Positions 7,415 to 23,955 of a stretch of 64,000 nucleotides of DNA are shown piece after piece. Position 1 is the stretch's first letter. Every line of letters starts with the position of its first letter. Source of the DNA: Pseudomonas mendocina (GTDB taxonomy: Bacteria; Pseudomonadota; Gammaproteobacteria; Pseudomonadales; Pseudomonadaceae). A program made the position numbers and the translations under genes. The notes below the pieces were generated by a model. The model was not told the DNA's origin. It saw nothing but the letters and a program-made list of their open reading frames with translations, and did no database searches. The stretch covers positions 3,596,001 to 3,660,000 of the forward strand of contig NZ_CP027657.1 in assembly GCF_003008615.1 (NCBI RefSeq), written 5' to 3'.

Positions 7415-7491
7415 GGCTACATAGCTCAGTCGGTTAGAGCGCAGCATTCATAATGCTGATGTCCCAGGTTCAAGTCCCGGTGTAGCCACCA
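7415..7491 (+). tRNA. tRNA-Met(CAT), elongator type; prophage attachment site
   Basis: The 77-nt cloverleaf has acceptor stem GGCTACA / TGTAGCC, anticodon stem CAGCA / TGCTG with loop TTCATAA, T-arm GGTTCAAGTCC and an encoded CCA. It resembles elongator tRNA-Met (metT/metU type) rather than initiator tRNA. Its 3' half (7446-7491) is duplicated at 20259-20304, which marks it as the integration target of the filamentous prophage. The crossover keeps the tRNA intact. Confidence 0.95.
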
Positions 7492-7493
7492 TA
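7446..7493 (+). repeat. attL: 48-bp direct repeat at the left prophage end
   Basis: This stretch, the tRNA-Met 3' half plus 2 bp, is identical to 20259-20306. Identity begins after a C/G mismatch on the left and ends at a T/A mismatch on the right. The pair brackets 12.9 kb with a tyrosine integrase gene next to this end. Confidence 0.93.
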
Positions 7494-7946: not shown

Positions 7947-8945
7947 TCACCTCCCTGTTATCACAGTATGACCGCTTTGATTGAGTGGAGATAGACGAAG
8001 CGCAGACTCCAGATGATCTGGCGACAGGTGTGCATAGCGCATGGTCATCGTGATGGTGGAGTGCCCGAGGATGCGTTGCAGACCCAGGATGTCACCACCG
8101 CCCATCATGTAATGGCTGGCGAAGGTGTGCCGGAGAATGTGAGTCATCTGTCCAGGTGTGTGGAAACCGCAACGCTGGTAAGCAGACCGGAATGCCGACC
8201 GGCAGGGCATGAACAACCGGCCATTCCCAGGCATACCCACCTTTAATGCAATTTCTTCGACCTCTTTAGGGATCGGCACCGACCGGGACTGACGGTTTTT
8301 GGTTCGGTGAAAGTGTGCCTTACCCCCGAACAGAGCTCCCCGTGACAGGGATTCCGCTTCGTCCCATCGGGCGCCAGTGGCCAAGCAGATCAGTGCAACC
8401 GGATAGGTATGGTTGTTGGTCGAGCGTTTGCACTCTTCAAGCAGTTGTTCGACCTGCTGCAAGGTCAGAAACGTCAGCTCGGTCTGATCGGTCTTAATCT
8501 GGCGAACCTTGGCCAATGGGTTGTTGCCGGCCCAGGCACCCAGGCGGATGAGTTCGGAGAACACTGCCGACAGGTAGCGCTGTTCGTGGTTGACGGTGTG
8601 CGGGCTGACATCTTTCAGGCGGGACTGGCGATAGCGTGCCCAGGCGAGGGCATCGAAGTTGGAGGCCATCGGATTGCCGAGACGTTCGACAGTGGCCAGG
8701 GTGCGGGCAAGCCGATGCTTGGCATCCTTGAGTGAGCAGCCGTGCAATTCATGCCAGAGCGTCACCAGATCCGACAGGCGATCATCGAGCGGTCGGCCGG
8801 TAGTGTTCAGGCTGGCGAAGAACTCCGATTCATAGCGCTGGGCTGCTGCTTTGGTTTTGAAACCCTTCTTGCGAATACGACGGCCAGAGCGACCGTTTTC
8901 GTAGAAGTCAGCTGTCCAGGTGCTGCCGTCTTTCCTGGCCGTCAT
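7947..8945 (-). CDS. Inovirus tyrosine integrase (Pf-type)
   Basis: The 332-residue site-specific recombinase should integrate and excise the phage at tRNA-Met. An N-terminal AP2-like/SAM-like region (DGSTWTADFYENGRSGRRIR...) precedes the catalytic domain. Catalytic residues are visible as R in LATGARWDEAE, HxxR in HILRHTFASH, H in ILGHST and the tyrosine in MRYAHLS. Its start overlaps the stop of the replication gene by 4 bp (ATGA). The order rep-int beside the att site matches Pf4 of P. aeruginosa, where IntF is PA0728. Confidence 0.92.
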   Translation of the reverse strand: MTARKDGSTWTADFYENGRSGRRIRKKGFKTKAAAQRYESEFFASLNTTGRPLDDRLSDLVTLWHELHGCSLKDAKHRLARTLATVERLGNPMASNFDALAWARYRQSRLKDVSPHTVNHEQRYLSAVFSELIRLGAWAGNNPLAKVRQIKTDQTELTFLTLQQVEQLLEECKRSTNNHTYPVALICLATGARWDEAESLSRGALFGGKAHFHRTKNRQSRSVPIPKEVEEIALKVGMPGNGRLFMPCRSAFRSAYQRCGFHTPGQMTHILRHTFASHYMMGGGDILGLQRILGHSTITMTMRYAHLSPDHLESALRLSPLNQSGHTVITGR

Positions 8946-10225
8946 ACAGCACGCCCCCAGCGGATATGGCGTTCTTCCAGGATGCCTTTGATGTGCTTGT
9001 ACAGTCCGTCTTCATCCATGCCTTTGGCTGCATAGTGGTCGCGGATCACCGGCCAGCACTCCCAATCCTTGAGCCGATAGAAAGCCTTTCTAGCGCCCAC
9101 TCGCTCCCGTGCCAGCAGGCTGACGAAGTTTCCCAAGAACAGCTCCACGTTCTTGCCGGAGAAGCCCCGCGAGGTCTTGTATTGGCGCTTGTACTCGGTT
9201 TCATCCACCAGGGAATCGACCGGCAGATCGACGCGCACGTCGTCACGGATCAGCGTCCAGATAGGTTCGAAGTAACCAGGGCGAGCCAGCAATTTGAATT
9301 GGCGCAGGCCATAGCGCCACAGGCCGTCGAGGTGCGGAGCAAAGGCGGCGTAGCTGTTTGTTTCGATGGCCGCACCGGTGTGAAGATCGACAGAGCCCGA
9401 GGCGAATTGCTGGATAACCGAGTGGTGGTAGCGCAGCTCGACACGCCACACGTCTTGCTCGGGGTTGTAGTTGTCCGGGTCTGCTTCGTCGAAGCTGTCA
9501 CGGCGACGCCAGACGTTTTCCCAATAGTCGAGCTTATCGATGGCTCGGGCCTGTTCGGTCTTGTTGTAGATCCCGAGCTGGACGCCACCAGCGGAGCCGA
9601 ATAGATACGACTGGCCTTTGCCGTAGGTGGCAGACTCCAGTGTCCACTGGATTTCCTTGATGCCGGAAATATCACGGGCAGCACGTGCACGGCAGTGCAT
9701 ACGGGCTACCAGATCGGCGGGTGGTTGCCAGCCTTGCAGGTCTAGCGCGAGGTGAACAGCGCATTGGTTGCGTTCGACGTTGGTCAGAACGTGGCTGGCG
9801 TAATAGTCCAAGCGCTCTTGCAGGCGCTCAGGCGAGAAGGTGTCGATGGCGTGGGGCGAGACTTCGACTTTCAGGTGTGGCCCGATGTTCTCCAGCTTGG
9901 CGTTGAAGTTCTTCACCAGCAGGATGATGCCCAGGTCAGCATTTTGGAGTTTGTACTGGTAGCCGGAATCCTTGCTGACACGCCCGGAATGCCAGCGCTG
10001 GCCAGCAAAGTCCACGATGGTGCCGGGTTTCTCGAACAGGCACATGATTTCAGGACGGATCAGACCACGATACAACTGGCGGACGGTATCGACGCTACAG
10101 GCCAGGATTCGGACGTTGGACAGATCCACGAAACCACCCGCTCGAGGATCACAGAAGAGACGACTTTTCGGGTCTTCTTTCCCGGTCTCAATATCAATGC
10201 GGTAGTAGTCCTTTGGTGCGCTCAT
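8942..10225 (-). CDS. Phage replication initiation protein (gpII-like)
   Basis: This 427-residue protein corresponds by position and size to PA0727 of Pf4, the rolling-circle replication initiator that nicks the replicative form. Recognisable segments are CAVHLALDLQGW, LFGSAGGVQLGIYNKTEQAR and WRVELRYHHSVI, which follow the pattern of Rep_trans/phage X replication initiators (acidic block, YxKxxE, RxExR). The C-terminal third is variable and basic. It overlaps the integrase start by 4 bp. Which tyrosine nicks cannot be decided by eye. Confidence 0.85.
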   Translation of the reverse strand: MSAPKDYYRIDIETGKEDPKSRLFCDPRAGGFVDLSNVRILACSVDTVRQLYRGLIRPEIMCLFEKPGTIVDFAGQRWHSGRVSKDSGYQYKLQNADLGIILLVKNFNAKLENIGPHLKVEVSPHAIDTFSPERLQERLDYYASHVLTNVERNQCAVHLALDLQGWQPPADLVARMHCRARAARDISGIKEIQWTLESATYGKGQSYLFGSAGGVQLGIYNKTEQARAIDKLDYWENVWRRRDSFDEADPDNYNPEQDVWRVELRYHHSVIQQFASGSVDLHTGAAIETNSYAAFAPHLDGLWRYGLRQFKLLARPGYFEPIWTLIRDDVRVDLPVDSLVDETEYKRQYKTSRGFSGKNVELFLGNFVSLLARERVGARKAFYRLKDWECWPVIRDHYAAKGMDEDGLYKHIKGILEERHIRWGRAV

Positions 10226-10346
10226 TCTCTGTATCTCTCTGGTGCAATGTGGACGCTTAAATCTGTTTATCTGACGTGCTACAGGGACGTCAGCGGCGTG
10301 CGCGCCGCTCGCTCCCTCTGAACTGAACCGCTCGCTCGCGGCGCGC
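10226..10346. other. Inovirus intergenic region, candidate replication origin
   Basis: This gap between zot and rep contains nested inverted repeats: GACGT...ACGTC at 10273-10291, GCGGCGTGCGCGCCGC at 10294-10309, and GCGCGCCGC-type arms up to 10350. In filamentous phages the main intergenic region with the plus-strand origin and packaging hairpins lies just upstream of the replication gene. No nick-site consensus was recognised. Confidence 0.4.
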
Positions 10347-11648
10347 TCACCGCCACGGCCTTGAGGCGTATTCGCTGTCCGGCACGATGGTCAGCCGCGT
10401 CTGGGAATAGGTGGACTGCGAGCGGTTGGAGCCATCCGACCGAATCGAAGACGCAGCGGATATGCCGTTGGCTTCCGACCGGTTACTGCCGCTGTCTCGT
10501 TGCTGTGGTCGCCCACGGCACATGACATGGCCGGCGTAGCCCATGGGGTGGCTGATATGCGCCATGCAGGGGCCAAGAACGCGGACGAGGTAGCCGAGCT
10601 GGCGAAGGTCGGCCAGGGATTGGCCGAGCACCTGGCCGTCACTGTCGATCACGTCGAACAGGCCCAACTCTTTGGGCTTGCCTTCGGCCTGGGCGGTCAT
10701 CAGTGCCCGAACCGCAAAGGTGCGTGGGGCGAACGGGTGGTTCAGCTCACCAGCCAGAACATCAGGCGGCTGGTTAACCAGAAGATCACCAGCAGGATCA
10801 GTGCGCGCATCAGCAGGAAGCGCAGGACTCGCCACACCGGGTGAAGTAGCTGGAGCAGCAGCGTTCGCAGGGGCTTGAGCGCTGCTAGGAGCACCGAACT
10901 TAGGTGTGCCAAGAGATAGTAGAGCGACAAACAGACAGGCAATAAATGCCAGTAGAAAAAGTAGCTTAGGTGACTTGAGGAGGCTCTTTCCGGCTTTGGT
11001 GTCCTGGGTCTTTCCGGTGGCGGTGGATTGATAGAGCCGGAAGGTGTCTTGCTTGATTCGCTTGTATTCAATGATGGTGCCTTCGGCGGGTGGCCGGTTG
11101 AGCTGGGCGTCATGCTGGGCCTCCTTGTAGCGACCTTTGATGCCGATGACGGCGAGGTTGGAATGCTTGTAGGCCATCTCGCAGGTCATGCGGATGTCGT
11201 CACGGATGTAGCTGATGTTCGGGGTGGTCAGCACCACGTCCCAGTTCCAATGGCGGTGGCGAGTCCAACCGTCGAGCCAGTTCATTGGCCGGTCAGCGGC
11301 TTGGGCGGCTTCGGATCCGCCGGGGAAGTCGAAGCGCTCGAGGTCGCGTTCGCGCCAGGCCTTGGGGAAGACCAGCTGGGTTTCGTCGAAGATGATGAAC
11401 GCGCCGCGGGGTGCCCATTGGAACCACGTGCGCATGCGTTCCATATCGGCTTGCTGTTCAAGGTCGAGGTTGATGATGTCGACGCTTTCCGGCAGATCGG
11501 GCATGACCTGCAGCACGCGCTCCAGGGTGAAGCCGCGAACGTTGGTGATGATCAACCGACCCTCTTTGAGGGCCGGCACCGCGTCGTCTTGAATGGCGCC
11601 GCTGGTTTTGTAGGAGCCGTTGGGGCCATGGTGGATTTTGATCGACAT
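10347..11648 (-). CDS. Zot-domain assembly ATPase (gpI-like)
   Basis: This 433-residue inner-membrane motor for virion extrusion has a P-loop at residues 8-16 (GPNGSYKTS) and a Walker B-like [12 protein letters not shown]. The segment [19 protein letters not shown] is typical of Zot. A membrane helix near residues 230-250 ([17 protein letters not shown]) is followed by an Ala/Pro-rich stretch and a periplasmic C-terminal domain. It corresponds to PA0726 of Pf4. It sits 2 bp from the gpVI-like gene in the morphogenesis operon. Confidence 0.93.
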
Positions 11649-11650
11649 GG

Positions 11651-12010
11651 TTAACGCCCTATGAACGGCACGAACTTGAGCGCGAAGCGGGTGGAGAGCG
11701 CCGAGAAGATGATGTTCAGCGCCTGGGGAATGCCGAAGAAGTTGAGCGCGTTGACGACTTCAGCAGGCAGAGCGCCCCAGCGCTGGCGGACGGCTTCGGC
11801 CAGGCCGATATCGTCCATGACCCCTTGGGCCGCCTCATAGGCGACCTCCAGGGCGAGTAGCTGAATCTGTACCCAGGAATAGATCGCAGCCTTGGTGAGC
11901 AGGACGAGGCCGTCTTTGACGAAGTCGTAGATGCCGGAGCTGAGGAAGTCCCAGACGAACTGGAAGAAAGCGAGGATCTGGTCGAGAAAGCCAGCGAGCC
12001 AATCAAGCAT
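11651..12010 (-). CDS. Inovirus minor coat protein, gpVI-like (DUF2523 type)
   Basis: The 119-residue, largely hydrophobic protein begins [20 protein letters not shown] and ends [20 protein letters not shown]. It lies between the adsorption protein gene and zot, where Pf phages encode the DUF2523 protein (PA0725 position). It probably caps the virion end together with the adsorption protein. Spacing to both neighbours is 2-5 bp. Confidence 0.85.
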
Positions 12011-12015
12011 GGTGG

Positions 12016-13614
12016 TTACCCTCTAAGGACGATGATGGCGGCCAGTGCGGCAGCCGCTAGGAGCAGGACGTAACGCAGGTAGGAAAGCTGGTCGGAGTAG
12101 TCAGCTGGGCAGATGCGCAGGGAGACGCCACCCGTGCTGATGGAGAAGGTTTCGCAGGGGAGCGAGCCGCTACTGGCACCGAGGTTGAGGTCGAACACGC
12201 CTTTGAACAGCGCGCCGTATTCCGCCAGTTTCTGGTCAAGCTCGGCGCGGGCACCGGCTATGCGCTCGTCCCATTCACTGAGGCCTTCGGCGAAGCTGCC
12301 CTGCTCACCTTGCTGGAGGTTGCGAGAGGGGCCGGGCGGGCCTTCTTCTTCCTCTTCTTCACCCTGGCTATCGCCGTTGCCATTACCTGAGCCGTCACCG
12401 TCCTTGATGCCGCCCGTGCCCTTGCAGTTCGGGCCGGTGCATTTGGAGCTTTCCGAGGTGACGTTGCCGTTGGAGTCCTTGGTGGTATTGCTGACGTTGG
12501 TGGTGACTTGTGTGGTGCAGGCACCCACCCCGGAGCAGACCACTTTGGTTTGCGTGTCGGTCTTGGTGGTCGTGCTGGAGCCGTCGGCGTTCTGCTTGGT
12601 TTCGACCTTGGTGTCGGTCATGGTGCCGGTGGAGCTGGGGTTCTTGCCGTAGCACTTGAACGGGCCGTTATTGAAACTGCCGCAGTTGGTGTAATCACCC
12701 GGCTTGCCGGTGTAGTCGGAGGATTTGCAGGCCAGGTGACCGCCCAGGCTGTCCTGCACGAAGACATAAACGCAGGGTTCCTTTTCGTTGATCAGCGGTT
12801 CATCGGTTGGCTTGCAGTCGGCACCAGGTTCACAGATATCCCCGGGTTCGCCGGGTGGTGCCGTCCACTGGGGAGCATCACCATCTGCAACGGCGCCAGT
12901 GAAGTCGAGCGCAACGCGGCATTTGACCGGAGCAGGCCCAAGGCTAATGCCGCCGATGCTTTTGGGCGCAGGGGCTTTGCAATGGCTGAAGTCGATGACA
13001 TTGGCGACGCAGCCTTGCTCGGTGACGGTTGGGGGCTGGATCGGATTGCCTTGGCTATCGACGGAAACATAGATGGTGGTGAAGCGGGTGGACTCAGCGA
13101 AGTGAGAGCACTGCGATGGTTTGTCCGCATCGTAGAACGCTACGCACTCGCCCTGGGCGTTGGTTATCTTGGGGATGGTCGCGCCGCCGATGATTTCTTC
13201 ACCGCACTTTTCGCCACCAGGCTCAAGCGGCGCCAGGCATTGGTTAGACCCGTCGGTGATGGTGGGATCGTAGGTAGTACCAGGAGGACAGGCGGTACCC
13301 AGTCGTACCGTAGCGATGGTGATGCGGCATGAGCCGGCAGTGCAGCCGTTGATTCTGTAGCGATAAGAAATTTGGTCGGGTGATGTAGACGTGACCGTTT
13401 CGAACGTTAGGCCACTAGGGTAGGAGCCCTGAGATACAAAGTACGCGAGTCGAGCATCGCGAACCTCAAGGCTGGTCGAGAACTTACCGAAGCCTGGGTT
13501 ACTGAGAAGCTCCCATTGATAGTCCTGGGCTTGGGCACGAGGCGATAGGAAAAGAGCCCCCACCCAAAACACCAGCAGGGCAACCATCAAGCTATTGCGT
13601 TCGCGCTCACACAT
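12016..13614 (-). CDS. Adsorption/minor coat protein, gpIII-like (TspB-related)
   Basis: The protein has about 530 residues: a signal peptide (SLMVALLVFWVGALFLSPRAQAQ), a Cys-rich extracellular region, Thr/Ser/Asn-rich and Gly/Asp/Glu-rich linkers near residues 340-430, and a C-terminal membrane anchor (YLRYVLLLAAAALAAIIVLRG). This is the layout of inoviral pIII and TspB-type proteins that bind the receptor pilus and release the virion. It matches the CoaA position (PA0724) in Pf4. The start is uncertain: ATG 13614 is used, with TTG 13620 and ATG 13587 possible. Receptor specificity cannot be told. Confidence 0.85.
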   Translation of the reverse strand: MCERERNSLMVALLVFWVGALFLSPRAQAQDYQWELLSNPGFGKFSTSLEVRDARLAYFVSQGSYPSGLTFETVTSTSPDQISYRYRINGCTAGSCRITIATVRLGTACPPGTTYDPTITDGSNQCLAPLEPGGEKCGEEIIGGATIPKITNAQGECVAFYDADKPSQCSHFAESTRFTTIYVSVDSQGNPIQPPTVTEQGCVANVIDFSHCKAPAPKSIGGISLGPAPVKCRVALDFTGAVADGDAPQWTAPPGEPGDICEPGADCKPTDEPLINEKEPCVYVFVQDSLGGHLACKSSDYTGKPGDYTNCGSFNNGPFKCYGKNPSSTGTMTDTKVETKQNADGSSTTTKTDTQTKVVCSGVGACTTQVTTNVSNTTKDSNGNVTSESSKCTGPNCKGTGGIKDGDGSGNGNGDSQGEEEEEEGPPGPSRNLQQGEQGSFAEGLSEWDERIAGARAELDQKLAEYGALFKGVFDLNLGASSGSLPCETFSISTGGVSLRICPADYSDQLSYLRYVLLLAAAALAAIIVLRG

Positions 13615-13631
13615 ATCCAACCCATTCGAAG

Positions 13632-13655
13632 AAAACCCCGCCGAAGCGGGGTTTG
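13632..13655 (-). terminator. Terminator between major coat and adsorption protein genes
   Basis: The stem AAACCCCGC / GCGGGGTTT has a 4-base loop (TTCG on the minus strand) and is followed by TCTT. A strong terminator behind the major coat gene is a common feature of filamentous phage genomes. It lets coat mRNA accumulate over downstream genes. Confidence 0.85.
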
Positions 13656-13673
13656 TTGCAACGGCTCTACTGG

Positions 13674-13751
13674 TCAGAAGAACTCGCCGATTCGAAAGCC
13701 GGTGATGAAGGCACCGGCAATGAACGCGCCGAGCATTACTGACCAGAGCAT
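13674..13751 (-). CDS. 25-residue hydrophobic virion peptide (gpVII/gpIX-like)
   Basis: The tiny gene runs from ATG 13751 to TGA. It encodes a 25-residue peptide starting MLWSVMLGAFIAGAFITG and ending GFRIGEFF, one membrane helix with a single basic residue. It starts 12 bp after the major coat stop and ends before the terminator, so it is probably translated with coat protein. Small single-helix proteins of 25-35 residues form the leading tip of filamentous virions. The role is inferred from size and place. Confidence 0.6.
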   Translation of the reverse strand: MLWSVMLGAFIAGAFITGFRIGEFF

Positions 13752-13763
13752 TGGCGCGGGCCG

Positions 13764-14024
13764 TTAGGCTTTGCGCAGCATGGAGAACACCACGCCGACG
13801 CAGGCCAGGACGGCCAGTGCCAGAGCGATGTAACCGGCGATGGTGCTGGCGTCGCCTTGGCCTTCCTGGATCTGCGCCTGAATAGCGGCGGTGTCGACCA
13901 CGGCAGCGAAGGCCGGGACGGTGGCGACGGAGACGGCAGCGCCGATGCAGGCGTTGCGAGCGAAGCGACGAGCACGACCGAAGGCGGTAGCGCCGTTTTG
14001 CAGCTGGGTTTTCAGTTGTTTCAT
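13764..14024 (-). CDS. coaB: Major coat protein, CoaB (Pf1 gpVIII) homologue
   Basis: The 86-residue precursor has a long basic signal sequence ending ATVPAFA and a mature part of 46 residues. The mature part is acidic at the front (VVDTAAIQAQIQEGQGDAS), hydrophobic in the middle (IAGYIALALAVLACVGVVF) and ends SMLRKA. Mature Pf1 coat protein also has 46 residues, shares the VIDT...GQGD pattern and ends SMLRKA. It coats the phage filament. It is followed by the 25-residue peptide and a terminator. Confidence 0.95.
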   Translation of the reverse strand: MKQLKTQLQNGATAFGRARRFARNACIGAAVSVATVPAFAAVVDTAAIQAQIQEGQGDASTIAGYIALALAVLACVGVVFSMLRKA

Positions 14025-14029
14025 GGTTG

Positions 14030-14278
14030 TTACCTCATGCGTCGTAGAACAGATGCGACCAATCCACCGGAAAGGCCGATTGCGAATGCCATCAGCGTTC
14101 CGCCAAAACCAATGGCGAAGGCTTCAGGCGAGAATCCCCCGGAGACCAGAATGTCCACATAGCCAGCGGCCTCGGGCGGGATCAGGTAGGCCTGTTGCCA
14201 TCCGTATTGCGAGCAGGACACCGACGCATCCGCGTTGGTGACCCACTCCATGCACACGTGAACGGCAACGACCGACAT
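14030..14278 (-). CDS. Inovirus small membrane protein (PA0722-like position)
   Basis: The 82-residue protein has a Cys-containing N-terminal part (VCMEWVTNADASVSCSQYGW) and a C-terminal glycine-rich membrane segment (AFAIGFGGTLMAFAIGLSGG) ending in arginines. It lies 5 bp upstream of coaB in the same direction. Proteins of this size in this place are conserved in Pf phages, but their role is not established. Confidence 0.7.
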   Translation of the reverse strand: MSVVAVHVCMEWVTNADASVSCSQYGWQQAYLIPPEAAGYVDILVSGGFSPEAFAIGFGGTLMAFAIGLSGGLVASVLRRMR

Positions 14279-14289
14279 ACAGGCCCCTG

Positions 14290-14469
14290 TTACTCAGCCA
14301 GGCTGGGGTCGCGGATGACCTCAGCCATGTCCAGGCAGTCGGGGCACAGGGTTTGGTGGGGCGCCTGGTTCAGATCGGGCAGCAGGTCGGGCTGTGGGGC
14401 AGGCTGGCTGTAGAGCTGGCCCATGGGCTGCCCGCAGCAGTCGCACAGCACGCGATCAACGATCAGCAC
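14290..14469 (-). CDS. 59-residue zinc-ribbon-like inovirus protein
   Basis: The GTG start at 14469 is preceded by a strong GGGAGGGC site. The 59-residue product has two cysteine clusters, LCDCCGQPMGQ at residues 8-18 and LCPDCLDMAE near the end, separated by a Pro/Gln-rich linker. The arrangement suggests one zinc site. It lies between the ssDNA-binding protein gene and the 82-residue gene, where Pf4 has a small gene (PA0721). Confidence 0.7.
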   Translation of the reverse strand: MLIVDRVLCDCCGQPMGQLYSQPAPQPDLLPDLNQAPHQTLCPDCLDMAEVIRDPSLAE

Positions 14470-14484
14470 GGCGGCGCCCTCCCG

Positions 14485-14865
14485 TTAGGCCTTGGCCGCG
14501 TCCGGCTGAGTGCCGGTCGGTTTGGCTTGTTGCTGGGCGGCGAGCTTGCGGGCCTCGCTGGTTGGGTCAGCAGCACCGCGAGCAGGCTTGGCCGACTCGA
14601 CGTGCAGGACGATGAACTTGCCCGCGTTCTTGGAGCCGCGATCAATCTCTACGGTGACGCGGACGGTCTCCAGTACATCGAGGCCTTTGCAGGACGCCCA
14701 GACCTCGTCCAGGGAGCCTTCTGCTACCTGCATGGAAAGCAGGGAGACGCCGAGGTCTTTCTCGCCGTCCGGTTCGTCGCCCAGGTACAGCTTCACCAGA
14801 TCCACGTTGTCGAACTTCACGCGCTCAGCGCTGATGAATGCCAGTTCCATAGTGGTGCGTGCCAT
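14485..14865 (-). CDS. Phage single-stranded DNA-binding protein (gpV-like)
   Basis: The 126-residue protein has a beta-rich N-terminal part (TMELAFISAERVKFDNVDLVKLYLG...VRVTVEI) and a flexible Ala/Gln/Pro/Lys-rich tail. It matches the size and position of the gene V protein of Pf phages (PA0720 in Pf4). That protein coats newly made single strands before extrusion and can repress translation. The start has GAGGAAACACAC upstream. Confidence 0.8.
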   Translation of the reverse strand: MARTTMELAFISAERVKFDNVDLVKLYLGDEPDGEKDLGVSLLSMQVAEGSLDEVWASCKGLDVLETVRVTVEIDRGSKNAGKFIVLHVESAKPARGAADPTSEARKLAAQQQAKPTGTQPDAAKA

Positions 14866-14890
14866 GTGTGTTTCCTCGCTTAATTGCGCG

Positions 14891-14989
14891 TTAGTGCGCG
14901 GGTTTGCCTTTCAGCAGGCCGAGCGAGTCCACACGGGCAAACTTCGCGTTTTTGCCCAGGTGGTTTTCTCGACTTGCCGAGGTTTTCAG
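14891..14989 (-). CDS. Possible very small ORF upstream of the ssDNA-binding protein gene
   Basis: An open frame of about 32 codons ends at TAA 14891 and reads [19 protein letters not shown] followed by a leucine-rich end. It has no ATG; CTG at 14989 or an internal GTG would have to start it. The residues look protein-like but the start is doubtful. Confidence 0.25.
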
Positions 14990-15118
14990 TTAGCGCCGCT
15001 GGTGCAGCGGGTTAGTTGTTCAACACCAAGGGCTTTGCCCTTGTCATCCCACTCTTGCCGCCGAGGGCTCGGGAGCGCGGGGCGGTGGAGCTGCCCCACA
15101 CTCACGAGCGGAGGCTAT

Positions 15119-15436
15119 TTAAGGTGGTGGGTGTTCAAGGGTGCGCTCCGCCCGTGCCTCCGTTTGACCGAACGGTGGAGCGTGTTCGGACAAGCCGGGG
15201 GCGCGGCCCTTGATCTGTTCAGCATCGGTGGCGTTGGCCGGATCGCTGGGGGCTGCTTTGCATTGGTCGATGACGGCCTCGAATGAACGAAGAAACAGAT
15301 CGTCGTTCGCTTCCAGAATCTCTATGTGAGCGTGACTGATATAGAGGCCGCCAAGTGATGCGCCGATCAGAAAGGGCAGCGACCATGACCAGAGCAGGGC
15401 GACCAGATAGCGGCCGACGCGGAAAGAGACGGTCAT
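15119..15436 (-). CDS. Inovirus inner-membrane protein, function unknown
   Basis: The 105-residue protein has an N-terminal membrane helix (YLVALLWSWSLPFLIGASLGGLY), a short acidic amphipathic segment (IEILEANDDLFLRSFEAVIDQ) and a low-complexity tail. It lies in the early region between the regulator genes and gene V. I do not recognise a family. The 129 bp downstream (14990-15118) hold only small hairpins such as CAAGGG...CCCTTG. Confidence 0.55.
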   Translation of the reverse strand: MTVSFRVGRYLVALLWSWSLPFLIGASLGGLYISHAHIEILEANDDLFLRSFEAVIDQCKAAPSDPANATDAEQIKGRAPGLSEHAPPFGQTEARAERTLEHPPP

Positions 15437-15972
15437 GCGATCACCCCACCAGTTCGAACGGTTCGCGCAGGGGCACGAAAGGCGTGGGTTTGCCGGTGTC
15501 GCTCACAACGCTCCAATACTTCTCCGGTCGGGACGGTGGCGTGTGTTTCTCGCAGGTAAAGGCCGGCGTAACGTGGTTGCGACCATTTACCTTTGACCAT
15601 TGCGCGGGGCGGCACTCGGTGCATGGTGTGGAAGGGGAGGTAACGCGGCGTACCGGCACCCAGTTGCGGTTCAACCAGCACACAGAGCAGTCGCAGTTGT
15701 CGGCGTGCGGGTGCCGGTGAAAGGCGAACGTCTTGCCCCGTGGATTGCGCGCAAAGCAGCTCTGGCAGCCGCAATCCTTGTGGTGCGATAGCAGGTACTG
15801 GCTCGTGTTGGTCATTGGCCGACACCTCTGGCTTTGCCTGGGTGAAGCTGGCTTGAAGGCGGGTGACGATTTCGGCGTTCAGGGAGCGGTTGGCCTGTTC
15901 GGCGGCTTGCTTTACCTGGGCGCGCAGGGCTGGCGGCATGCGCAACTTGAATTGCGGGTGCTCCCTAGTCAT
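15433..15972 (-). CDS. Arc-type ribbon-helix-helix protein, reading frame runs through the next gene
   Basis: The first 50-60 residues are a clear Arc/MetJ-type domain: MTREHPQFKLRMPPALRAQV then KQAAEQANRSLNAEIVTRLQ. Beyond about residue 55 the frame continues for 120 codons, but this part is the out-of-frame shadow of the Cys-rich gene at 15441-15815. Either the original stop was lost by an indel, or the two genes truly overlap. It overlaps the excisionase-like gene by 8 bp at its start, so it is probably co-transcribed with it. Arc-type proteins are repressors in phages. Confidence 0.55.
   Translation of the reverse strand: MTREHPQFKLRMPPALRAQVKQAAEQANRSLNAEIVTRLQASFTQAKPEVSANDQHEPVPAIAPQGLRLPELLCAQSTGQDVRLSPAPARRQLRLLCVLVEPQLGAGTPRYLPFHTMHRVPPRAMVKGKWSQPRYAGLYLRETHATVPTGEVLERCERHRQTHAFRAPARTVRTGGVIA
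15441..15815 (-). CDS. Cys-rich inovirus protein (zinc-binding motifs), function unknown
   Basis: The 124-residue protein carries cysteine pairs in DCGCQSCFARNP, NCDCSVCWLNR and TPCTECRPAQW plus CEKH. This looks like two small treble-clef or ribbon zinc sites. It is read in a different frame from the Arc-type frame that covers the same DNA. The ordered cysteines argue that this frame is the real one. Position suggests an early phage function. No family name can be given. Confidence 0.6.
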   Translation of the reverse strand: MTNTSQYLLSHHKDCGCQSCFARNPRGKTFAFHRHPHADNCDCSVCWLNRNWVPVRRVTSPSTPCTECRPAQWSKVNGRNHVTPAFTCEKHTPPSRPEKYWSVVSDTGKPTPFVPLREPFELVG

Positions 15973-16237
15973 CGCTGTAATCCCCCGCGCAGAAGATGGT
16001 TTTGCCTCGGTCGAGGTCGCGGCGGATGCGGTGCAGGTTGATGACGCGGTGACGGCCGATTTTCACGGTCGGGACGGTGTGGCTTTCGATCCAGCCGCGC
16101 ACCACGTCTTCGGTGATTTGCTCCATGCCCAGGAGCTGAGCCAGCACGTATTTCGTGCAGAACGGTGCGTCGCGGAAATCCGTTACGCGTTGGGCGTCTC
16201 CCGAAATCGAAAGCCCCACTACACCAGACTGTTCCAT
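15965..16237 (-). CDS. Excisionase-like DNA-binding protein (XisF-like)
   Basis: The 90-residue protein has a winged-helix/MerR-like excisionase core: KYVLAQLLGMEQITEDVVRG, then WIESHTVPTVKIGRHRVINL with basic residues after it. In Pf4 an excisionase (XisF4) is encoded divergently from the repressor Pf4r and promotes excision and phage gene expression. The same arrangement is seen here, with the repressor 110 bp away. A decayed copy lies at 22190-22393. Confidence 0.75.
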   Translation of the reverse strand: MEQSGVVGLSISGDAQRVTDFRDAPFCTKYVLAQLLGMEQITEDVVRGWIESHTVPTVKIGRHRVINLHRIRRDLDRGKTIFCAGDYSDD

Positions 16238-16266
16238 GCGAATGTCCTATAATTGCCTGACAGACC

Positions 16267-16335
16267 AACTAAGTAATATTTACTAGGTAGCCCCATTGTC
16301 GGGCGCTTTCCTACTAAGTACAAGCTACTAAGTAG
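16267..16335. promoter_or_regulatory. Four palindromic operator sites between excisionase-like and repressor genes
   Basis: A perfect 11-bp palindrome CTACTAAGTAG lies at 16325-16335. Three variants are present: ACTAAGTA near 16268-16275, TACTAGGTAG at 16281-16290 and CTACTAAGTA at 16311-16320. They cover the divergent promoter region and end 11 bp before the repressor start. They are the natural candidates for repressor binding sites. The repressor of the second element has different palindromes. Confidence 0.7.
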
Positions 16336-16346
16336 AATTTTTAGGA

Positions 16347-16613
16347 ATGATAAGAGATCGGCTTATAAGCCTTTTCGACAGTAAGCGGACGAGCGTCTGG
16401 TTTGAGAAGGAAACCGGTATCGACCGATACCGATGGGGCAACATCCGCAGCGGGAAGGCCCGCCTGTCTGACGCAGAGATAGATGCCGTCGTGAAGGTGT
16501 TTCCTCAGTATTCGCTATGGCTGGTCAGCGGCGAGATCGCGCCGGAGATAGGCCAGACCAGCCCCGAATTCGACGAAGCCAACCGAAACTTGGCCAATCC
16601 AAACGCGGGATAG
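16347..16613 (+). CDS. Prophage repressor (Pf4r-like), helix-turn-helix
   Basis: The 88-residue protein should keep the phage dormant. It begins IRDRLISLFDSKRTSVWFEK, contains a helix-turn-helix like region (DRYRWGNIRSGKARLSDAEI), and has the family C-terminus VFPQYSLWLVSGEIAPEIGQ ending in NPNAG. The gene at 22535 is a homologue with the same C-terminal block. The ribosome site is unusual: AGGA directly abuts the ATG, so translation may be leaderless or weak. Low repressor level would fit. Confidence 0.78.
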   Translation: MIRDRLISLFDSKRTSVWFEKETGIDRYRWGNIRSGKARLSDAEIDAVVKVFPQYSLWLVSGEIAPEIGQTSPEFDEANRNLANPNAG

Positions 16614-16676: not shown

Positions 16677-17138
16677 ATGGCTCATGAGAGCAAGCCTGAT
16701 CCGGTTGAAGATTACCGAAATATTCAGCGTGAAGTTAAGGAGTGGGAAAAATACCTAAACGATAATGTTGGGTATTTCGCATTCACATTTGCCGTTGCTT
16801 CATTAGGAACTAGCATGCCTCAACTTTGGGCGATGATTAGTCTTGTGTTTATTGTGGCGGGGCATGTTGTAAATAAAAAAGGGAAGATGGCAACTCTAGA
16901 GAGAGTTGTTGCATTGAGGAAGAAATCGGATAGTGAGTACTACGCGTTTGTTGAAAAGGAAGCTAGAAGAACTATAAGTGTAAAGCGATCTATACCGTTT
17001 GTTATAGGTTATGTGACCTTGGTTGTTATAATGCTCGCACCTGCTTTGATGCCGGGCGACTGGGTGAGCTTTCTCTATGGTGGTAAACCTTATCTGGATT
17101 TTTCAACTCTCACGTTAAGGCATGGCGTAGAGATCTAA
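16677..17138 (+). CDS. Small three-helix membrane protein, prophage cargo
   Basis: The 153-residue protein has a soluble acidic start (PDPVEDYRNIQREVKEWEKYL), two close helices (YFAFTFAVASLGTSMPQLW and AMISLVFIVAGHVVN), a charged coiled segment, and a third helix (PFVIGYVTLVVIMLAPALM). It starts with a good GGGAG site. Its AT-rich codon use differs from the phage genes. It converges with the defence-like operon, overlapping its last gene by 4 bp. Superinfection exclusion, or an effector in defence (compare SLATT-type proteins), is possible but unproven. Confidence 0.65.
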   Translation: MAHESKPDPVEDYRNIQREVKEWEKYLNDNVGYFAFTFAVASLGTSMPQLWAMISLVFIVAGHVVNKKGKMATLERVVALRKKSDSEYYAFVEKEARRTISVKRSIPFVIGYVTLVVIMLAPALMPGDWVSFLYGGKPYLDFSTLTLRHGVEI

Positions 17139-18115
17139 TCAATGCTAATGCCTAGGTCATTGGCTATGTTTTCAAGCAGCGAGCGAGATAAAGGCCAATC
17201 CTGATTTAGGCGTCGCTTTTTGTTCCGCATCATCCAGTAAACAAACAGCACAACGCTCTGTTTGAAAAAAACTTCTGAGAAATATCTATCTTTGATTTTC
17301 TCAAAAATAAATGAGTTTCTTTCTAAGAAATCGCTAATCGATTCTAGCGTGGAGTCATCAAGGAACTGTTCGAAAGCGTCATAGACTACAAGCGATGAGC
17401 GCTGAGATATTGGTTTTAATTCTGTGTTTTTTAAGAATAGTGAGTCTAGCCCTTCAGCTATTCCGTGCTCTTGAAGTGGCCCGTAATTAAGTTTTTTTGT
17501 CGCCTGAGAGAAAAATTCATCAGTTGTTTCAATCAGCGCCATGCTCTTGGCAACTGTCCTATGAACCTCAGGATGCACTTTCTTCTGAGCTTTGTATATT
17601 GAATCGTGGGTCAGTTCGGCATGGGCATGTTGAAGTAGAGTTCTTATCTGTACTTCGCAGGGTGTATTGGAAGGTATTTCTATATCGTTGTAAATAAAGT
17701 CTTCTGTCGGTCGTAATACATAATGAACTGATTGGTACGAAAAAAGCAGAGGTTCGGAAATCTTTTCTTGGGCAAAGTGCTTGCAGTTATCAAATTTCCA
17801 TAATGAGTTACGCTGGATTGTTTCGCATATGAAGTCAATGTCTTCGGTTAGCAACACAACAAACCTGATGCCTACTTTGTCTTCAATCTGATGATATGGA
17901 TCTTGATAGCTTTTTTCAGGGCGATGGAATGCCTTGTCTAAAATTGATTCGTCAGACTTTAGTCTGGGCTCTTGGATATCAATTTTTAGAAATGTTTTGA
18001 GGTCTTTGCCCTGCTCCTCGAGTGAGGCTTTAATTTGCTCAATAATGAATAAGCCCCAGGCCGAGTAAATTGGCTTCTCTTTCTGCCAAAGAGATATGAA
18101 CTCTTGTTCGTTCAT
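17135..18115 (-). CDS. RelA/SpoT synthetase-domain protein (ToxSAS/CapRel-like), prophage cargo
   Basis: The 326-residue protein has a RelA_SpoT nucleotide-pyrophosphokinase domain. EDKVGIR lies at residues 78-84, SYQSVHYVL around 126-134, and EVQIRTLLQHAHAEL at 154-168, all signatures of the synthetase fold. No hydrolase (HD), TGS or ACT domain is present. The C-terminal 150 residues are helical and unfamiliar. Single-domain synthetases act as toxins (ppApp synthesis or tRNA CCA-end pyrophosphorylation) or as phage sensors in CapRel. Its start overlaps the NA37-like gene by 4 bp (ATGA). Codon use is AT-rich. The reaction cannot be read from sequence. Confidence 0.85.
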   Translation of the reverse strand: MNEQEFISLWQKEKPIYSAWGLFIIEQIKASLEEQGKDLKTFLKIDIQEPRLKSDESILDKAFHRPEKSYQDPYHQIEDKVGIRFVVLLTEDIDFICETIQRNSLWKFDNCKHFAQEKISEPLLFSYQSVHYVLRPTEDFIYNDIEIPSNTPCEVQIRTLLQHAHAELTHDSIYKAQKKVHPEVHRTVAKSMALIETTDEFFSQATKKLNYGPLQEHGIAEGLDSLFLKNTELKPISQRSSLVVYDAFEQFLDDSTLESISDFLERNSFIFEKIKDRYFSEVFFKQSVVLFVYWMMRNKKRRLNQDWPLSRSLLENIANDLGISID

Positions 18116-19209
18116 TCTTGTTGAATCACTTTGTCTTTGATGATGACTTTAGTCCATTCTGCGTGCATACCATATTCGTCAATATCTCCTTCAATAGGTT
18201 CAATGCTTACTAGTGCTTTGAAAGCCTCAGAGGGGGCAAGGATCTTAACGTTTCCACCGAAGCTGATTTTGCGAAATCTTAAATTGCTTTCGATGTGAGT
18301 TATATCCTTGGTTATGTCTGTGCTTGGTACGCCGTGTTTATCCATGTGGCTAGAGAATTCGTCCTGAGTGTCTACATCAGAAAAGAATCTGGATGAAAAT
18401 TCTGAGGTGCTGATAGTAGAGGATTTTTCTACCTTGAGATAAGTGATAAGAGCATTTAAAAGGTCATTGCGTTGAATAGGGTCGATGTTAAGCTTTTTGA
18501 TGAATGAGCAAGTTGCATCATAAAAGCTCTTAGTATCTCTAGCGCTGGTTTTGGGGTAGCCGCACCCTAAAAAACGAGAGTAAAAGTACTGTGCAGCAGC
18601 CTTGCCGTCAGTTTGGTTTATTTGTGAGTCTGAGACCAAGACAGACCATTTTTCATTAAGGTCTTCACATTGGTCGTTATGTTCAGGTTTCTCAAAAAAA
18701 CCAGCGGTTTTATAGAGCTTGGTGGCGGGGGTTAATAAAACCTCCTCGACAAACTTTAGAGATATTTCTTTGGTTATGTCGTTTACTTCTTTTTCGTATG
18801 CACTGTGAATCTCAGCCTTTATTATTCCAAGGAACTTTCTGTGGGGGTGTCCTTGCCTGCCTGTAAATATAACGACGATTCCACCAGGGATGGAACGAGC
18901 TTTCTGTGCTTCGGTAAGCTTCAACGCCATATCGTAAGAGGATGCTGCAAAGGTTGCATCGTCTTGATCTATCATTTTGTTTACAATGGATGCCATGTCA
19001 TTATTGGCTTGGTTAATAATATCCATCTTCACCGCCTTAGAATCGCGACCGAGAGCTTCTCTAACTCTAGTCTTGAAGGTAGTCATAGCGGTTTTGTCAA
19101 ATCTTGTATATTCGTGACTTTGTAGTGGGGGAACTACTTTCCCTTCTGGGTCGCGTTGATAAACTTGGTGGATAATAATTCTGTCTATTTCTAAGTTTAT
19201 AAGATCCAT
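18112..19209 (-). CDS. NdpA/NA37-family nucleoid-associated protein, prophage cargo
   Basis: The 365-residue protein resembles E. coli YejK (NdpA) in layout. It starts NLEIDRIIIHQVYQRD, has GGIVVIFTG and FLGIIKAEI in the middle, and a central FYSRFLGCGYPKTSARDTKS region. It ends with EFSSHMDKHGV and a beta-rich end (NLRFRKISFGGNVKIL). NA37 proteins bind DNA or associate with the nucleoid, but their chemistry is poorly known. It is sandwiched in an operon between an Mrr-like nuclease (15 bp gap) and the RelA/SpoT protein (4-bp overlap), so it may sense DNA or partner the toxin. Confidence 0.72.
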   Translation of the reverse strand: MDLINLEIDRIIIHQVYQRDPEGKVVPPLQSHEYTRFDKTAMTTFKTRVREALGRDSKAVKMDIINQANNDMASIVNKMIDQDDATFAASSYDMALKLTEAQKARSIPGGIVVIFTGRQGHPHRKFLGIIKAEIHSAYEKEVNDITKEISLKFVEEVLLTPATKLYKTAGFFEKPEHNDQCEDLNEKWSVLVSDSQINQTDGKAAAQYFYSRFLGCGYPKTSARDTKSFYDATCSFIKKLNIDPIQRNDLLNALITYLKVEKSSTISTSEFSSRFFSDVDTQDEFSSHMDKHGVPSTDITKDITHIESNLRFRKISFGGNVKILAPSEAFKALVSIEPIEGDIDEYGMHAEWTKVIIKDKVIQQE

Positions 19210-19224
19210 TAGGTGCTCTCGAAA

Positions 19225-20064
19225 TTAAATGTTAATTAGACCTTTGCATTTTGGGAAGGATTTGCATCCCCAAAACTTGCCGCCGAAGTTAGGGCCGCGT
19301 TTGGCTACTCGTAGTGTCATTTCGTTGCCACAGATAGGGCAAGCGGGCTGTTCATTTACCTTCTGAGCGCTTGGGGTATAGGATATTTGGCTTGATCTGT
19401 TTTCTTTAATCCATTTGCCCAAGTGCTCGCCAGATATTAGCTGTATATTTCGGCCTTCAGCGAAAGATATAGCATCTTGAGTATATGAGCCTGAAGTAAC
19501 GATGAATCCACCAGCTGCGCCTGATGCAGTCATGACTCCGAAGAATTCACGTATAACGGTAACGCCGACTTTTACTGATTTCCATTGTTTGCATTGGACT
19601 AGATATTTGTCAGAGCCCATGCGAAGAACTAAGTCGATACCGCCGTCAGGGCCGTTGCCGCCTGTCTCAGTGACAGTGAAGCCCTTACGACGAAAGGCTT
19701 CGCCAACTAGTTGTTCAAACTCACGCCAGCTCATGCCATCAATAACCTGTGCCGACTGAGCAGCAGAGGCCGCATCGTTAAGCAGCTTACGGCGCTTAGA
19801 TCGACCAATGACAGATGCTATGGAACCGAACACAAAGGCAGCAGGCACGATGTACTGGAGGAACATCGAGAAAGTGCGGAACATCTGCCCGACCATCATT
19901 TCACCTAGTTGCTTGGTACTGGCGACGGTGGGTGCCGGGCTAGTAGCGACAGAGTGAAAGAAAAGCCAAGCCGCAAAAGCGATCAGCAGGCTAACCCACC
20001 ATGGAAGGCGGCTAGCGATAAAGATGAGATCTTCGAAAGGCGAGGTTTTACTACGACGGGCCAT
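19225..20064 (-). CDS. Membrane-anchored Mrr-like restriction endonuclease with topoisomerase zinc ribbon
   Basis: The 279-residue protein starts at ATG 20064, preceded by AGAGGTAAGG. Two N-terminal helices (LPWWVSLLIAFAAWLFFHSV and FLQYIVPAAFVFGSIASVIG) are followed by an Mrr_cat nuclease domain: WREFEQLVGEAFRRKGFTV, then GPDGGIDLVL and YLVQCKQWK, which supply the PD-(D/E)xK residues. A C-terminal zinc ribbon (CPICGNEM ... FWGCKSFPKCKG) like that of topoisomerase I completes it. It should cut foreign or modified DNA near the membrane. It is the first gene of the three-gene operon and is less AT-rich than the other two. Confidence 0.85.
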   Translation of the reverse strand: MARRSKTSPFEDLIFIASRLPWWVSLLIAFAAWLFFHSVATSPAPTVASTKQLGEMMVGQMFRTFSMFLQYIVPAAFVFGSIASVIGRSKRRKLLNDAASAAQSAQVIDGMSWREFEQLVGEAFRRKGFTVTETGGNGPDGGIDLVLRMGSDKYLVQCKQWKSVKVGVTVIREFFGVMTASGAAGGFIVTSGSYTQDAISFAEGRNIQLISGEHLGKWIKENRSSQISYTPSAQKVNEQPACPICGNEMTLRVAKRGPNFGGKFWGCKSFPKCKGLINI

Positions 20065-20230: not shown

Positions 20231-20306
20231 TCTGGCTCAGTCGGGCGGTTTGTAGCGGATTCATAATGCTGATGTCCCAGGTTCAAGTCCCGGTGTAGCC
20301 ACCATA
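20231..20306 (+). repeat. attR of the first prophage with phage right-end sequence
   Basis: 20259-20306 repeats the tRNA-Met 3' half exactly (48 bp). The preceding stretch 20231-20258 (CTGGCTCAGTCGGGCGG...GTAGCGG) is phage right-end DNA, because a homologous stretch lies at 25801-25828 at the end of the second element. Confidence 0.9.
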
Positions 20307-20573: not shown

Positions 20574-20861
20574 TCAGGCGAACGCCAGTTTGCCCACCTG
20601 TTTGAGGTCTACGTGCTGACGGGCGATCCATAGATCATAAGCGTCCTGCATGGCCAGCCAGCTTTCCGGCGAGCGCCCCAGTGCTACTGACAGGCGCAGG
20701 GCCATTTCCGGCGTTACACGGCTACTGCCTTTGAGTACACGACTCAGTGTCGAGGGTGCTACGCCTAGCTTCTCGGCCAACTCGCGGCCGCTAATGCCGT
20801 TGGGCTCCAGGTAGATATCGGTGATGAACTCACCGGGATGGGGTGGGTTGTGCATGTTCAT
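20574..20861 (-). CDS. higA: HigA-family antitoxin (XRE)
   Basis: The 95-residue protein starts HNPPHPGEFITDIYLEPNGI, then SGRELAEKLGVAPSTLSRVL, a classic HigA/VapI helix-turn-helix, and ends with PESWLAMQDAYDLW. It should bind the HigB toxin and repress its own promoter. Its partner gene upstream is frameshifted, so the antitoxin may now act alone. As I recall, P. aeruginosa PAO1 also has higA next to a tRNA-Met and ychF, which suggests this pair is chromosomal rather than phage-borne. Confidence 0.88.
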   Translation of the reverse strand: MNMHNPPHPGEFITDIYLEPNGISGRELAEKLGVAPSTLSRVLKGSSRVTPEMALRLSVALGRSPESWLAMQDAYDLWIARQHVDLKQVGKLAFA

Positions 20862-21138
20862 CAGTGGTAATCCTCATAGTCCAGGACATAAGCGTTTCCG
20901 TCGCGAAACTCGAACGTCAGCCGCCAGTTACCGTTTACCATGATCGACCAGCGCCCACGCATTTCTCCCTTGAGTGGGTGCAAGCGAAAGCCAGGGATAT
21001 CCATATCATCTATCGTCATAGCGGTATCCAGCGCTGCCAGTTGCATTCTTAATCGCTTGGCGTGGCTGCTTGTACGCCAGCCGTGCTGCCCGTTCCGAAC
21101 AGCTTGCGCAGCCCTTTGTGCTGGAAAGATTTGATCAT
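20861..21138 (-). pseudogene. higB: HigB toxin gene with a frameshift
   Basis: From ATG 21138 the first frame reads MIKSFQHKGLRKLFGTGSTA then GVQAATPSD and hits TAA. The conserved remainder (HAKRLRMQLAALDTAMTIDD ... HPLKGEMRGRWSIMVNGNWR) lies in another frame and joins near 21062-21078. An intact HigB would have about 92 residues, so a single-base indel has broken it, unless it is a sequencing error. The RNase toxin should be inactive. higA follows with a 1-bp overlap. Confidence 0.8.
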
Positions 21139-21149
21139 TACGGGAGTCT

Positions 21150-21172
21150 AGCGTGTTGCGCAACGCGCAATA
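21150..21172. promoter_or_regulatory. Probable higBA operator
   Basis: A palindrome centred on GTTGCGCAAC (21155-21164), extended by GCG...CGC arms, lies 12-35 bp upstream of the higB start. This is where HigA would bind. Confidence 0.5.
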
Positions 21173-22534: not shown

Positions 22535-22789
22535 ATGGACGCGGTTAGAGATAGAGCGCTTCAATTGATCAAGCGGATAGGCCCGAAGCAGCTGAGCGAG
22601 CTGGGCGGCAAGAATCACGACAGATGGAAGAACATCAGTCGGGGAGCTATCCGAATCAGCACTGTAGAGGTGGGCGTGCTTGCAGACGCGTACCCTGAAT
22701 ACGCGTTATGGCTGATATCCGGCCGGATCGAGCCCGAGAACGGCCACGTAAGTCCTGATTACGACGAAGCCAATCCAAACGCGGGATAG
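22535..22789 (+). CDS. Second prophage repressor (Pf4r-like)
   Basis: The 84-residue homologue of the repressor at 16347 shares the C-terminal pattern YPEYALWLISGRIEPENGHV and ends NPNAG, while its N-terminal recognition region (IKRIGPKQLSELGGKNHDRW) is different. This fits a different operator. The gene lacks a clear ribosome site, as does the first one. Downstream DNA keeps the same TAGCTAGGCGCT motif followed by GTACGCCCG that also follows the first repressor, and then cargo starts. Confidence 0.72.
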   Translation: MDAVRDRALQLIKRIGPKQLSELGGKNHDRWKNISRGAIRISTVEVGVLADAYPEYALWLISGRIEPENGHVSPDYDEANPNAG

Positions 22790-22902
22790 CGATCGTTCAG
22801 CAAGTGGTAGCTAGGCGCTAGTACGCCCGCAAAATATAAGGCTTTTCGAAAATTTGCTGCTGTTCTACATAAATTTTACTGGAAAGTTTCTATACAGAAT
22901 GA

Positions 22903-22919
22903 CACGTAATTAATACGTG
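22903..22919. promoter_or_regulatory. Palindrome upstream of the methyltransferase gene
   Basis: CACGTA-N5-TACGTG (CACGTAATTAATACGTG) lies 20 bp before the methyltransferase start. It could be a control site limiting methyltransferase expression, or a promoter element. Confidence 0.4.
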
Positions 22920-22938
22920 AGATGGTAGGTTAAACGGA

Positions 22939-23943: not shown

Positions 23944-23955
23944 TTTGGGGTGGCC

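What the first reader, a model, noticed from the sequence alone, without database searches (positions are those of the whole stretch)
17135..20064. Candidate new defence system: Mrr-like membrane nuclease + NA37 protein + RelA/SpoT synthetase domain
Three minus-strand genes form one operon (15-bp gap, then a 4-bp ATGA overlap) in the cargo slot of a filamentous prophage. Seen: PD-(D/E)xK and zinc-ribbon motifs in the first, YejK-like layout in the second, EDKVGIR/YQSVH/EVQIRT synthetase motifs in the third. The last two are AT-rich. Known: RelA/SpoT toxins (ToxSAS, CapRel) and Mrr nucleases act in phage defence. An NA37 protein coupled to a RelA/SpoT toxin is not a combination I know. It may sense phage DNA and hold or trigger the toxin. 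Whether all three work together, or only the last two, is open.
Basis: partly seen in the sequence, partly recalled or inferred. Interest (0 to 1): 0.8.

Follow-up and report, generated by a model that had tools for sequence, protein, structure and literature searches.

The report
Conserved NA37–RelA/SpoT gene pair
A small virus-like element in a bacterial chromosome carries two genes, a DNA-associated protein and an alarm-signal synthetase, whose relatives travel together across many bacterial groups and probably form a growth-arrest or anti-phage switch, although its function is untested.

Summary
The three minus-strand genes are real and lie in the cargo slot of a filamentous prophage bounded by a 48-bp tRNA-Met repeat. 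NA37 plus RelA/SpoT is a conserved two-gene module: 135 of 140 loci found with this synthetase subfamily have NA37 directly upstream, overlapping by 4 or 1 bp in 126 of 139 pairs; 34 of 35 loci found with NA37 have the synthetase. In 398 genomes of the phylum, the same 3 hold both, adjacent. Mrr is not part of it: of 249 genus genomes, 15 have Mrr, 5 NA37, only this one both. A two-TM DUF4231/SLATT-like protein is a recurrent optional third partner. Eleven of 15 checked active-site positions are invariant in 139 rows; the fold is nearest RelQ/RelP, NA37 nearest YejK. Most likely: a mobile conflict module in which NA37 gates an alarmone synthetase. Toxicity, trigger and defence are untested, and known defence genes were not enriched nearby.

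The parts
17135..18115 (-). RelA/SpoT-domain synthetase, 326 aa: alarmone-synthetase domain about 1-212 plus an all-helical C-terminal domain 213-326
18112..19209 (-). NA37 (YejK-family) protein, 365 aa; conserved partner
18112..18115 (-). 4-bp ATGA overlap between NA37 stop and RelA/SpoT start
   Evidence: -4 in 91 and -1 in 35 of 139 pairs
19225..20064 (-). Mrr-type nuclease with two predicted N-terminal TM stretches and a C-terminal zinc ribbon; neighbour in the same cargo slot, judged not part of the module
   Evidence: Mrr_cat E 1.2e-32; TM; three other viral contigs with a full-length relative have no NA37 or RelA in the stretch fetched; genus survey 15 Mrr, 5 NA37, 1 shared of 249
16677..17138 (+). 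convergent 153-aa protein with two predicted TM stretches, overlapping the RelA/SpoT 3' end by 4 bp; role unknown
   Evidence: the only relative found in viral contigs is the copy of the same element
7446..7493 (+). attL-like repeat, 3' end of tRNA-Met
   Evidence: 48-bp identity with 20259-20306
20259..20306 (+). attR-like repeat, copy of the tRNA-Met 3' end
7947..16613 (.). filamentous prophage backbone (integrase, Zot-like assembly protein, phage families of unknown function, repressor-like ORF by eye)

Best explanation
A two-gene mobile conflict module, usually read from overlapping frames, with an optional membrane gene. Shown by computation: an NA37/YejK-type protein and a complete RelA/SpoT-type pyrophosphokinase of one subfamily are linked almost without exception, occur on prophages, plasmids and chromosomes of several phyla, and the synthetase keeps its active site. 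Inferred: the NA37 protein sits on DNA and holds or gates the synthetase; when phage or other invading DNA, or disturbance of the nucleoid, changes NA37, the synthetase is released, transfers pyrophosphate from ATP to a nucleotide ((p)ppGpp or a relative is my first guess, since the domain is nearest RelQ/RelP; a tRNA acceptor as in CapRel is not excluded), and growth stops. Where a DUF4231/SLATT-like two-TM protein is encoded in the same operon it may be a membrane effector or sensor of the same pathway. The Mrr nuclease next to it in this window is a separate gene.
For: Pairing: 135 of 140 loci; of the 5 others, L054 and L152 are fragmented copies with NA37 upstream, L115 and L151 lie at contig edges, L153 is a short match. 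Reverse: 34 of 35, the other at a contig edge. Phylum: the same 3 of 398 genomes hold the full-length synthetase and NA37, adjacent. Genus: NA37 in 5 of 249, each with RelA/SpoT next to it; in G005 the synthetase is in two pieces around a transposase-like ORF. Overlaps -4 in 91 and -1 in 35 of 139. R51, K53, K61, D79, R84, H131, E154, Q156, H170, Y174, K175 identical in 139 of 139 rows (duplicates included); S57 in 127, G82 in 136, Y127 in 138, R158 in 131. Seven of the invariant ones correspond to ATP-donor residues reported for FaRel2 (PMC11782079, passages; the matching of positions is mine, and I matched no residue to FaRel2 R77). Pairwise identities of the two proteins correlate over 101 pairs, Spearman 0.74, 0 of 500 permutations. 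Folds. Optional membrane partner: 16 of 44 adjacent same-strand ORFs of 100-260 aa have two TM stretches, against 22 of 803 others of that size in the same loci. SLATT proteins accompany other nucleotide-based conflict systems (PMC7159879 passages; DRT9, PMC12483538 passages).
Against: No experiment. No enrichment of known defence genes among sampled neighbours (100 of 385 eligible ORFs drawn, 4 dropped because they were NA37 itself). The membrane gene is missing from most loci. The synthetase is nearer to RelQ/RelP, not known as toxins, than to known toxSAS enzymes. NA37's DNA binding is inferred from its family. The search seeds were four synthetases already known to be paired, so the linkage holds for this subfamily; 16 of 398 genomes have weaker synthetase matches without this NA37. 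The permutation test does not separate function from simple linkage.
Confidence: 0.5

Rival explanations
1. Plain toxin-antitoxin addiction module: NA37 is simply the antitoxin of a toxSAS-like toxin and keeps the mobile element in the cell; phage defence is not selected.
For: Two overlapping genes, near-constant pairing, mobile location. In three broken copies (G005, L054, the N. gonorrhoeae record L011) the synthetase is broken while NA37 reads as one stretch, as expected if the synthetase is costly; in a fourth, L152, both are broken. Too few to test.
Against: 365 aa is large for an antitoxin and P0002 matches no antitoxin family in Pfam at E up to 1; nearest synthetase fold is RelQ/RelP.
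Confidence: 0.22
2. Regulatory cargo: NA37 relieves H-NS/MvaT-type silencing and the synthetase adjusts host physiology to favour the element's transfer or induction.
For: NdpA2, a YejK-family protein on ICE PAPI-1, counteracts MvaT and, with TprA, raises transfer (PMC8565334, passages); the pair sits on viral contigs and plasmids.
Against: The pair is found on unrelated element types and in several phyla, and no shared target gene showed among the neighbours sampled, which fits a portable stand-alone module better.
Confidence: 0.18
3. Three-gene defence system including the Mrr nuclease, as the reader left open.
For: Same strand, 15-bp gap.
Against: No relative of the Mrr protein at E up to 1e-3 in the pair loci L002-L153 other than the copies of this element; three other viral contigs with Mrr lack the pair in the stretch fetched; genus overlap only this genome.
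Confidence: 0.03
4. Ordinary stringent-response and nucleoid genes placed together by chance.
For: Both belong to broad families.
Against: 135 of 140 and 34 of 35 linkage in both directions.
Confidence: 0.02

Closest known systems
toxSAS toxin-antitoxin and defence modules (FaRel2/ATfaRel2, CapRel, Tas1/Tis1)
   Same: RelA/SpoT-type synthetase with conserved ATP-donor site, encoded with (or fused to) a controlling partner
   Different: Partner is a 365-aa NA37/YejK-type protein, not a small zinc-finger-like, Panacea or Tis1-type antitoxin; synthetase has a 110-aa helical C-terminal domain and is nearer RelQ/RelP in fold and profile
Small alarmone synthetases RelQ/SAS1 and RelP/SAS2
   Different: C-terminal helical domain, QHA[YH]xELxHD-type motif and NA37 partner
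YejK / NdpA (NA37, PF04245)
   Same: Family model and nearest fold
   Different: Distant in sequence (the profile finds YejK in the PDB only at E 0.11); next to a synthetase; mobile
Kiwa (KwaA-KwaB)
   Different: No profile similarity to KwaB (hhalign probability 0.3%, from a two-sequence KwaB profile); Kiwa has no synthetase (recalled)
SLATT-associated nucleotide systems (DRT9 and those predicted in PMC7159879)
   Same: Nucleotide-handling enzyme with an optional 2TM SLATT-like protein (PMC12483538, PMC7159879, passages)
   Different: Enzyme is RelA/SpoT type; SLATT-like gene in a minority of loci

Membership tests
toxSAS | RelA/SpoT synthetase domain with conserved donor-site residues | tested here: met
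   positions compared with FaRel2 as given in PMC11782079 (passages)
toxSAS | toxic when expressed without its partner | not testable with these tools
   needs expression
toxSAS | partner belongs to a known toxSAS antitoxin type | tested here: not met
   P0002 matches only NA37 above cut-off in Pfam
toxSAS | closer to known toxSAS enzymes than to RelQ/RelP | tested here: inconclusive
NA37/YejK | matches PF04245 above cut-off | tested here: met
   62.4 bits, cut-off 24.6
NA37/YejK | YejK fold | tested here: met
NA37/YejK | binds nucleoid DNA | not testable with these tools
   family knowledge only
Kiwa | KwaB family (PF16162) match | tested here: not met
   Pfam scan of P0002 at E up to 1 lists NA37 and DUF7543 only
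Kiwa | KwaB-like fold in the DNA-binding partner | tested here: inconclusive
Mrr-containing three-gene system | Mrr gene conserved with the pair | tested here: not met
SLATT / DUF4231 partner | DUF4231 above Pfam cut-off (24.7 bits) in the membrane gene | tested here: met
   above it in 6 of 11 scanned (P0013, L100, L121, L098, L044, L043); below it in L036, L041, L045, L134; L038 matched SLATT_4 only, below its cut-off
filamentous prophage | Zot-like protein, integrase and att repeats | tested here: met

The most novel reading that the evidence does not exclude
An alarmone-signalling immune system: an NA37 protein on DNA senses invading DNA and switches on a dedicated synthetase, whose nucleotide product arrests the cell and, in the three-gene form, opens a SLATT-like membrane channel. 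That would be a CBASS-like logic built on RelA/SpoT instead of a cGAS-like enzyme, and would give the long-obscure NA37/YejK fold a sensing role.
Probability: 0.22. Interest if true: 0.85.

Novelty: new variant of a known kind. Interest (0 to 1): 0.66.

Why it matters
A near-constant gene pair found in records titled as Pseudomonadota, desulfobacteria, Clostridium, Bacteroidota, Verrucomicrobiota and Streptomyces (some are metagenome bins), and on viral contigs and plasmids, is a strong sign of a portable function. None of the titles and abstract starts listed by my ten searches of the open paper library describes it. It links two families whose roles are unclear (NA37/YejK and orphan small alarmone synthetases) and makes both directly testable.

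Tried and rejected
Mrr as third component: rejected. One search also gave L193, a 30-residue match to the zinc-ribbon part, which I did not count.

P0004 (16677-17138) as a partner: only in copies of this element; left open.

Defence-island enrichment: not seen. At E up to 1e-15, 4 PADLOC families matched among 96 neighbour ORFs of 200-600 aa within 6 kb in the named-genome loci (PsyrA, PDC-S22, RTasSbcB, ShosA; one member each, and RTasSbcB may be a housekeeping exonuclease). Among 70 ORFs from ten stretches of the window's genome, mad3 matched in 3 members and four Cas7f models in 1 member each. The output counts members per family, not proteins with any hit. Of 9 cargo proteins of L190-L192 scanned with PADLOC only 1 matched.

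KwaB homology: fold hint only; profile comparison negative with a two-sequence KwaB profile. One search compared NA37 with the unrelated neighbour set as a blank.

E. coli: no near match of the window stretch or of the L129 pair in the 20,395 records of the E. coli collection. Only DNA roughly 85% alike or better would show.

Promoters: 3 sites found against 6.9 expected in shuffles; terminator-like sites 7 against 4.1; not used.

The C-terminal helical domain of the synthetase was not searched alone. Of the 115 synthetase relatives in genome contigs only the best 80 were returned.

The Kiwa paper PMC12348683 is not held.
Full report
What is there. They form the last part of a filamentous prophage: an integrase (7947-8945) and a Zot-like protein (10347-11648) are clear by PHROGs, and the 3' end of tRNA-Met at 7446-7493 is repeated perfectly over 48 bp at 20259-20306, so the element is about 12.9 kb and the three genes are its cargo. 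RelA/SpoT and NA37 have 40-41% GC, Mrr 50%, the Zot gene 61%.

The pair is conserved. Searching with the synthetase alone (an alignment of four already paired members, A3) gave 80 named-genome loci, the best of 115 relatives, and 60 viral-contig loci. An NA37 profile then found an NA37 ORF on the same strand directly upstream in 135 of 140 loci. Of the other five, two are fragmented copies with NA37 upstream (L054, L152), two begin at the contig edge (L115, L151) and one is a short match (L153). After start-codon refinement the distance is -4 bp in 91 and -1 bp in 35 of 139 pairs, which include plasmid and duplicate copies; 118 remain when synthetases over 85% identical are merged. The reverse search with NA37 gave 34 of 35 newly numbered loci with the synthetase, the last one ending at a contig edge; many of these contigs are the same as in the first scan. 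All 5 plasmid records with an NA37 match also have a synthetase match, next to it by their coordinates; I opened four of them. In 398 genomes drawn evenly from the phylum, full-length synthetase matches (E below 1e-100) occur in 3 and NA37 matches (E up to 1e-20) in the same 3, adjacent each time; 16 further genomes have weaker, partial synthetase matches without this NA37. In the genus, 5 of 249 genomes have NA37, each beside a synthetase, one of them in two pieces around a transposase-like ORF (by eye). The pair is thus rare per genome but tightly linked. Record titles and the plasmid records range over several proteobacterial classes, desulfobacteria, Clostridium, Bacteroidota, Verrucomicrobiota and, divergently, Streptomyces; some are metagenome bins.

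The Mrr gene is not part of it. Full-length relatives of the Mrr protein occur in three other IMG/VR contigs (55-59% identity) with different genes behind them and no NA37 or synthetase in the stretches fetched. Those genes include an AAA ATPase nearest AriA and PDC-M29A models, a DUF4747 protein and a MazG_C protein. In 249 genomes of the genus Mrr is in 15, NA37 in 5, and both only in this genome. No Mrr relative was found in the loci then held outside copies of this element.

An optional membrane gene recurs. A relative of the DUF4231 protein of the Klebsiella plasmid lies directly upstream of NA37 in 15 of the 140 loci and directly downstream of the synthetase in L121. A different protein, nearest SLATT_4 but below its cut-off in L134, lies upstream in L134 and, as relatives by phmmer, in two genomes of the window's genus, there with a 4-bp overlap. 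Over 118 non-redundant pairs, 16 of 44 same-strand neighbours within 150 bp and of 100-260 aa have two predicted TM stretches, against 22 of 803 other ORFs of that size (Fisher p 1.6e-12). TM calls are by a simple hydropathy rule and ORF calls are crude in both groups. Most loci have no such gene, so it is optional. In the window two nearby proteins (Mrr and P0004) also have two TM stretches, but neither is conserved with the pair.

How it may work. The near-constant pairing, overlapping frames, mobility and conserved active site point to a controlled enzyme in a portable conflict module. NA37 proteins are named for nucleoid association, and one on ICE PAPI-1 counteracts the silencer MvaT (PMC8565334, passages). 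The simplest model is that NA37 gates the synthetase in response to a DNA or nucleoid event, and that the synthetase stops growth by making an alarmone or modifying an acceptor. SLATT proteins are predicted nucleotide-responsive pores (PMC7159879, passages) and accompany some DRT9 systems (PMC12483538, passages), which suggests a role for the optional membrane gene. None of these steps has been measured.

Against the defence reading: known defence genes are not enriched among sampled neighbours, no PADLOC model matched the NA37 protein and the synthetase has only a weak match, and the synthetase is nearer to RelQ/RelP than to known toxSAS enzymes. An addiction module or a regulator of the carrier element remain real rivals.

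Literature. Of the papers listed by ten searches of the open library (titles and abstract starts seen) none describes this pair; most subscription papers and all bioRxiv preprints are outside that library. I read passages of PMC7159879, PMC8565334, PMC11782079, PMC12904381, PMC12483538 and PMC12409358, no whole paper.

Noticed in passing
window 22535-25698 (+): A second AT-rich cargo-like island just outside attR: a repressor-like ORF resembling (by eye) the one at 16347-16613, a C5 cytosine methyltransferase (MTase_II E 4.5e-86; DruM2 E 3.3e-82) and an AAA ATPase nearest HEC-04 and AriA models. It may be a remnant of a related phage with its own defence cargo.
   Followed up: partly
window 20574-21163 (-): Two adjacent ORFs that look like a HigBA-type toxin-antitoxin pair (by eye, no family scan), just beyond attR.
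   Followed up: no
L012 5854-6864: A Vibrio filamentous phage (PQ189320) carries a different, lone RelA/SpoT-domain gene downstream of its gene-1-type assembly gene, so filamentous phages have picked up such synthetases more than once.
   Followed up: partly
L241 3097-4398: In a genome of the same genus the synthetase gene is in two pieces around a transposase-like ORF, while the SLATT-like gene and NA37 are open frames.
   Followed up: partly
L117, L129-L132 and similar: In a set of related viral contigs the pair is convergent with a phage antitermination Q gene (PF06530 in L117, E 2e-48; others by similar sequence), a repeated insertion slot.
   Followed up: partly
L011 (NZ_CP119140.1): Two N. 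gonorrhoeae records of about 2.17 Mb stand in the plasmid collection although they are chromosome-sized; they hold NA37 and a synthetase match in two pieces.
   Followed up: no
L190-L192: Three viral contigs with an Mrr relative carry different genes behind it, a possible place to look for new defence genes.
   Followed up: partly
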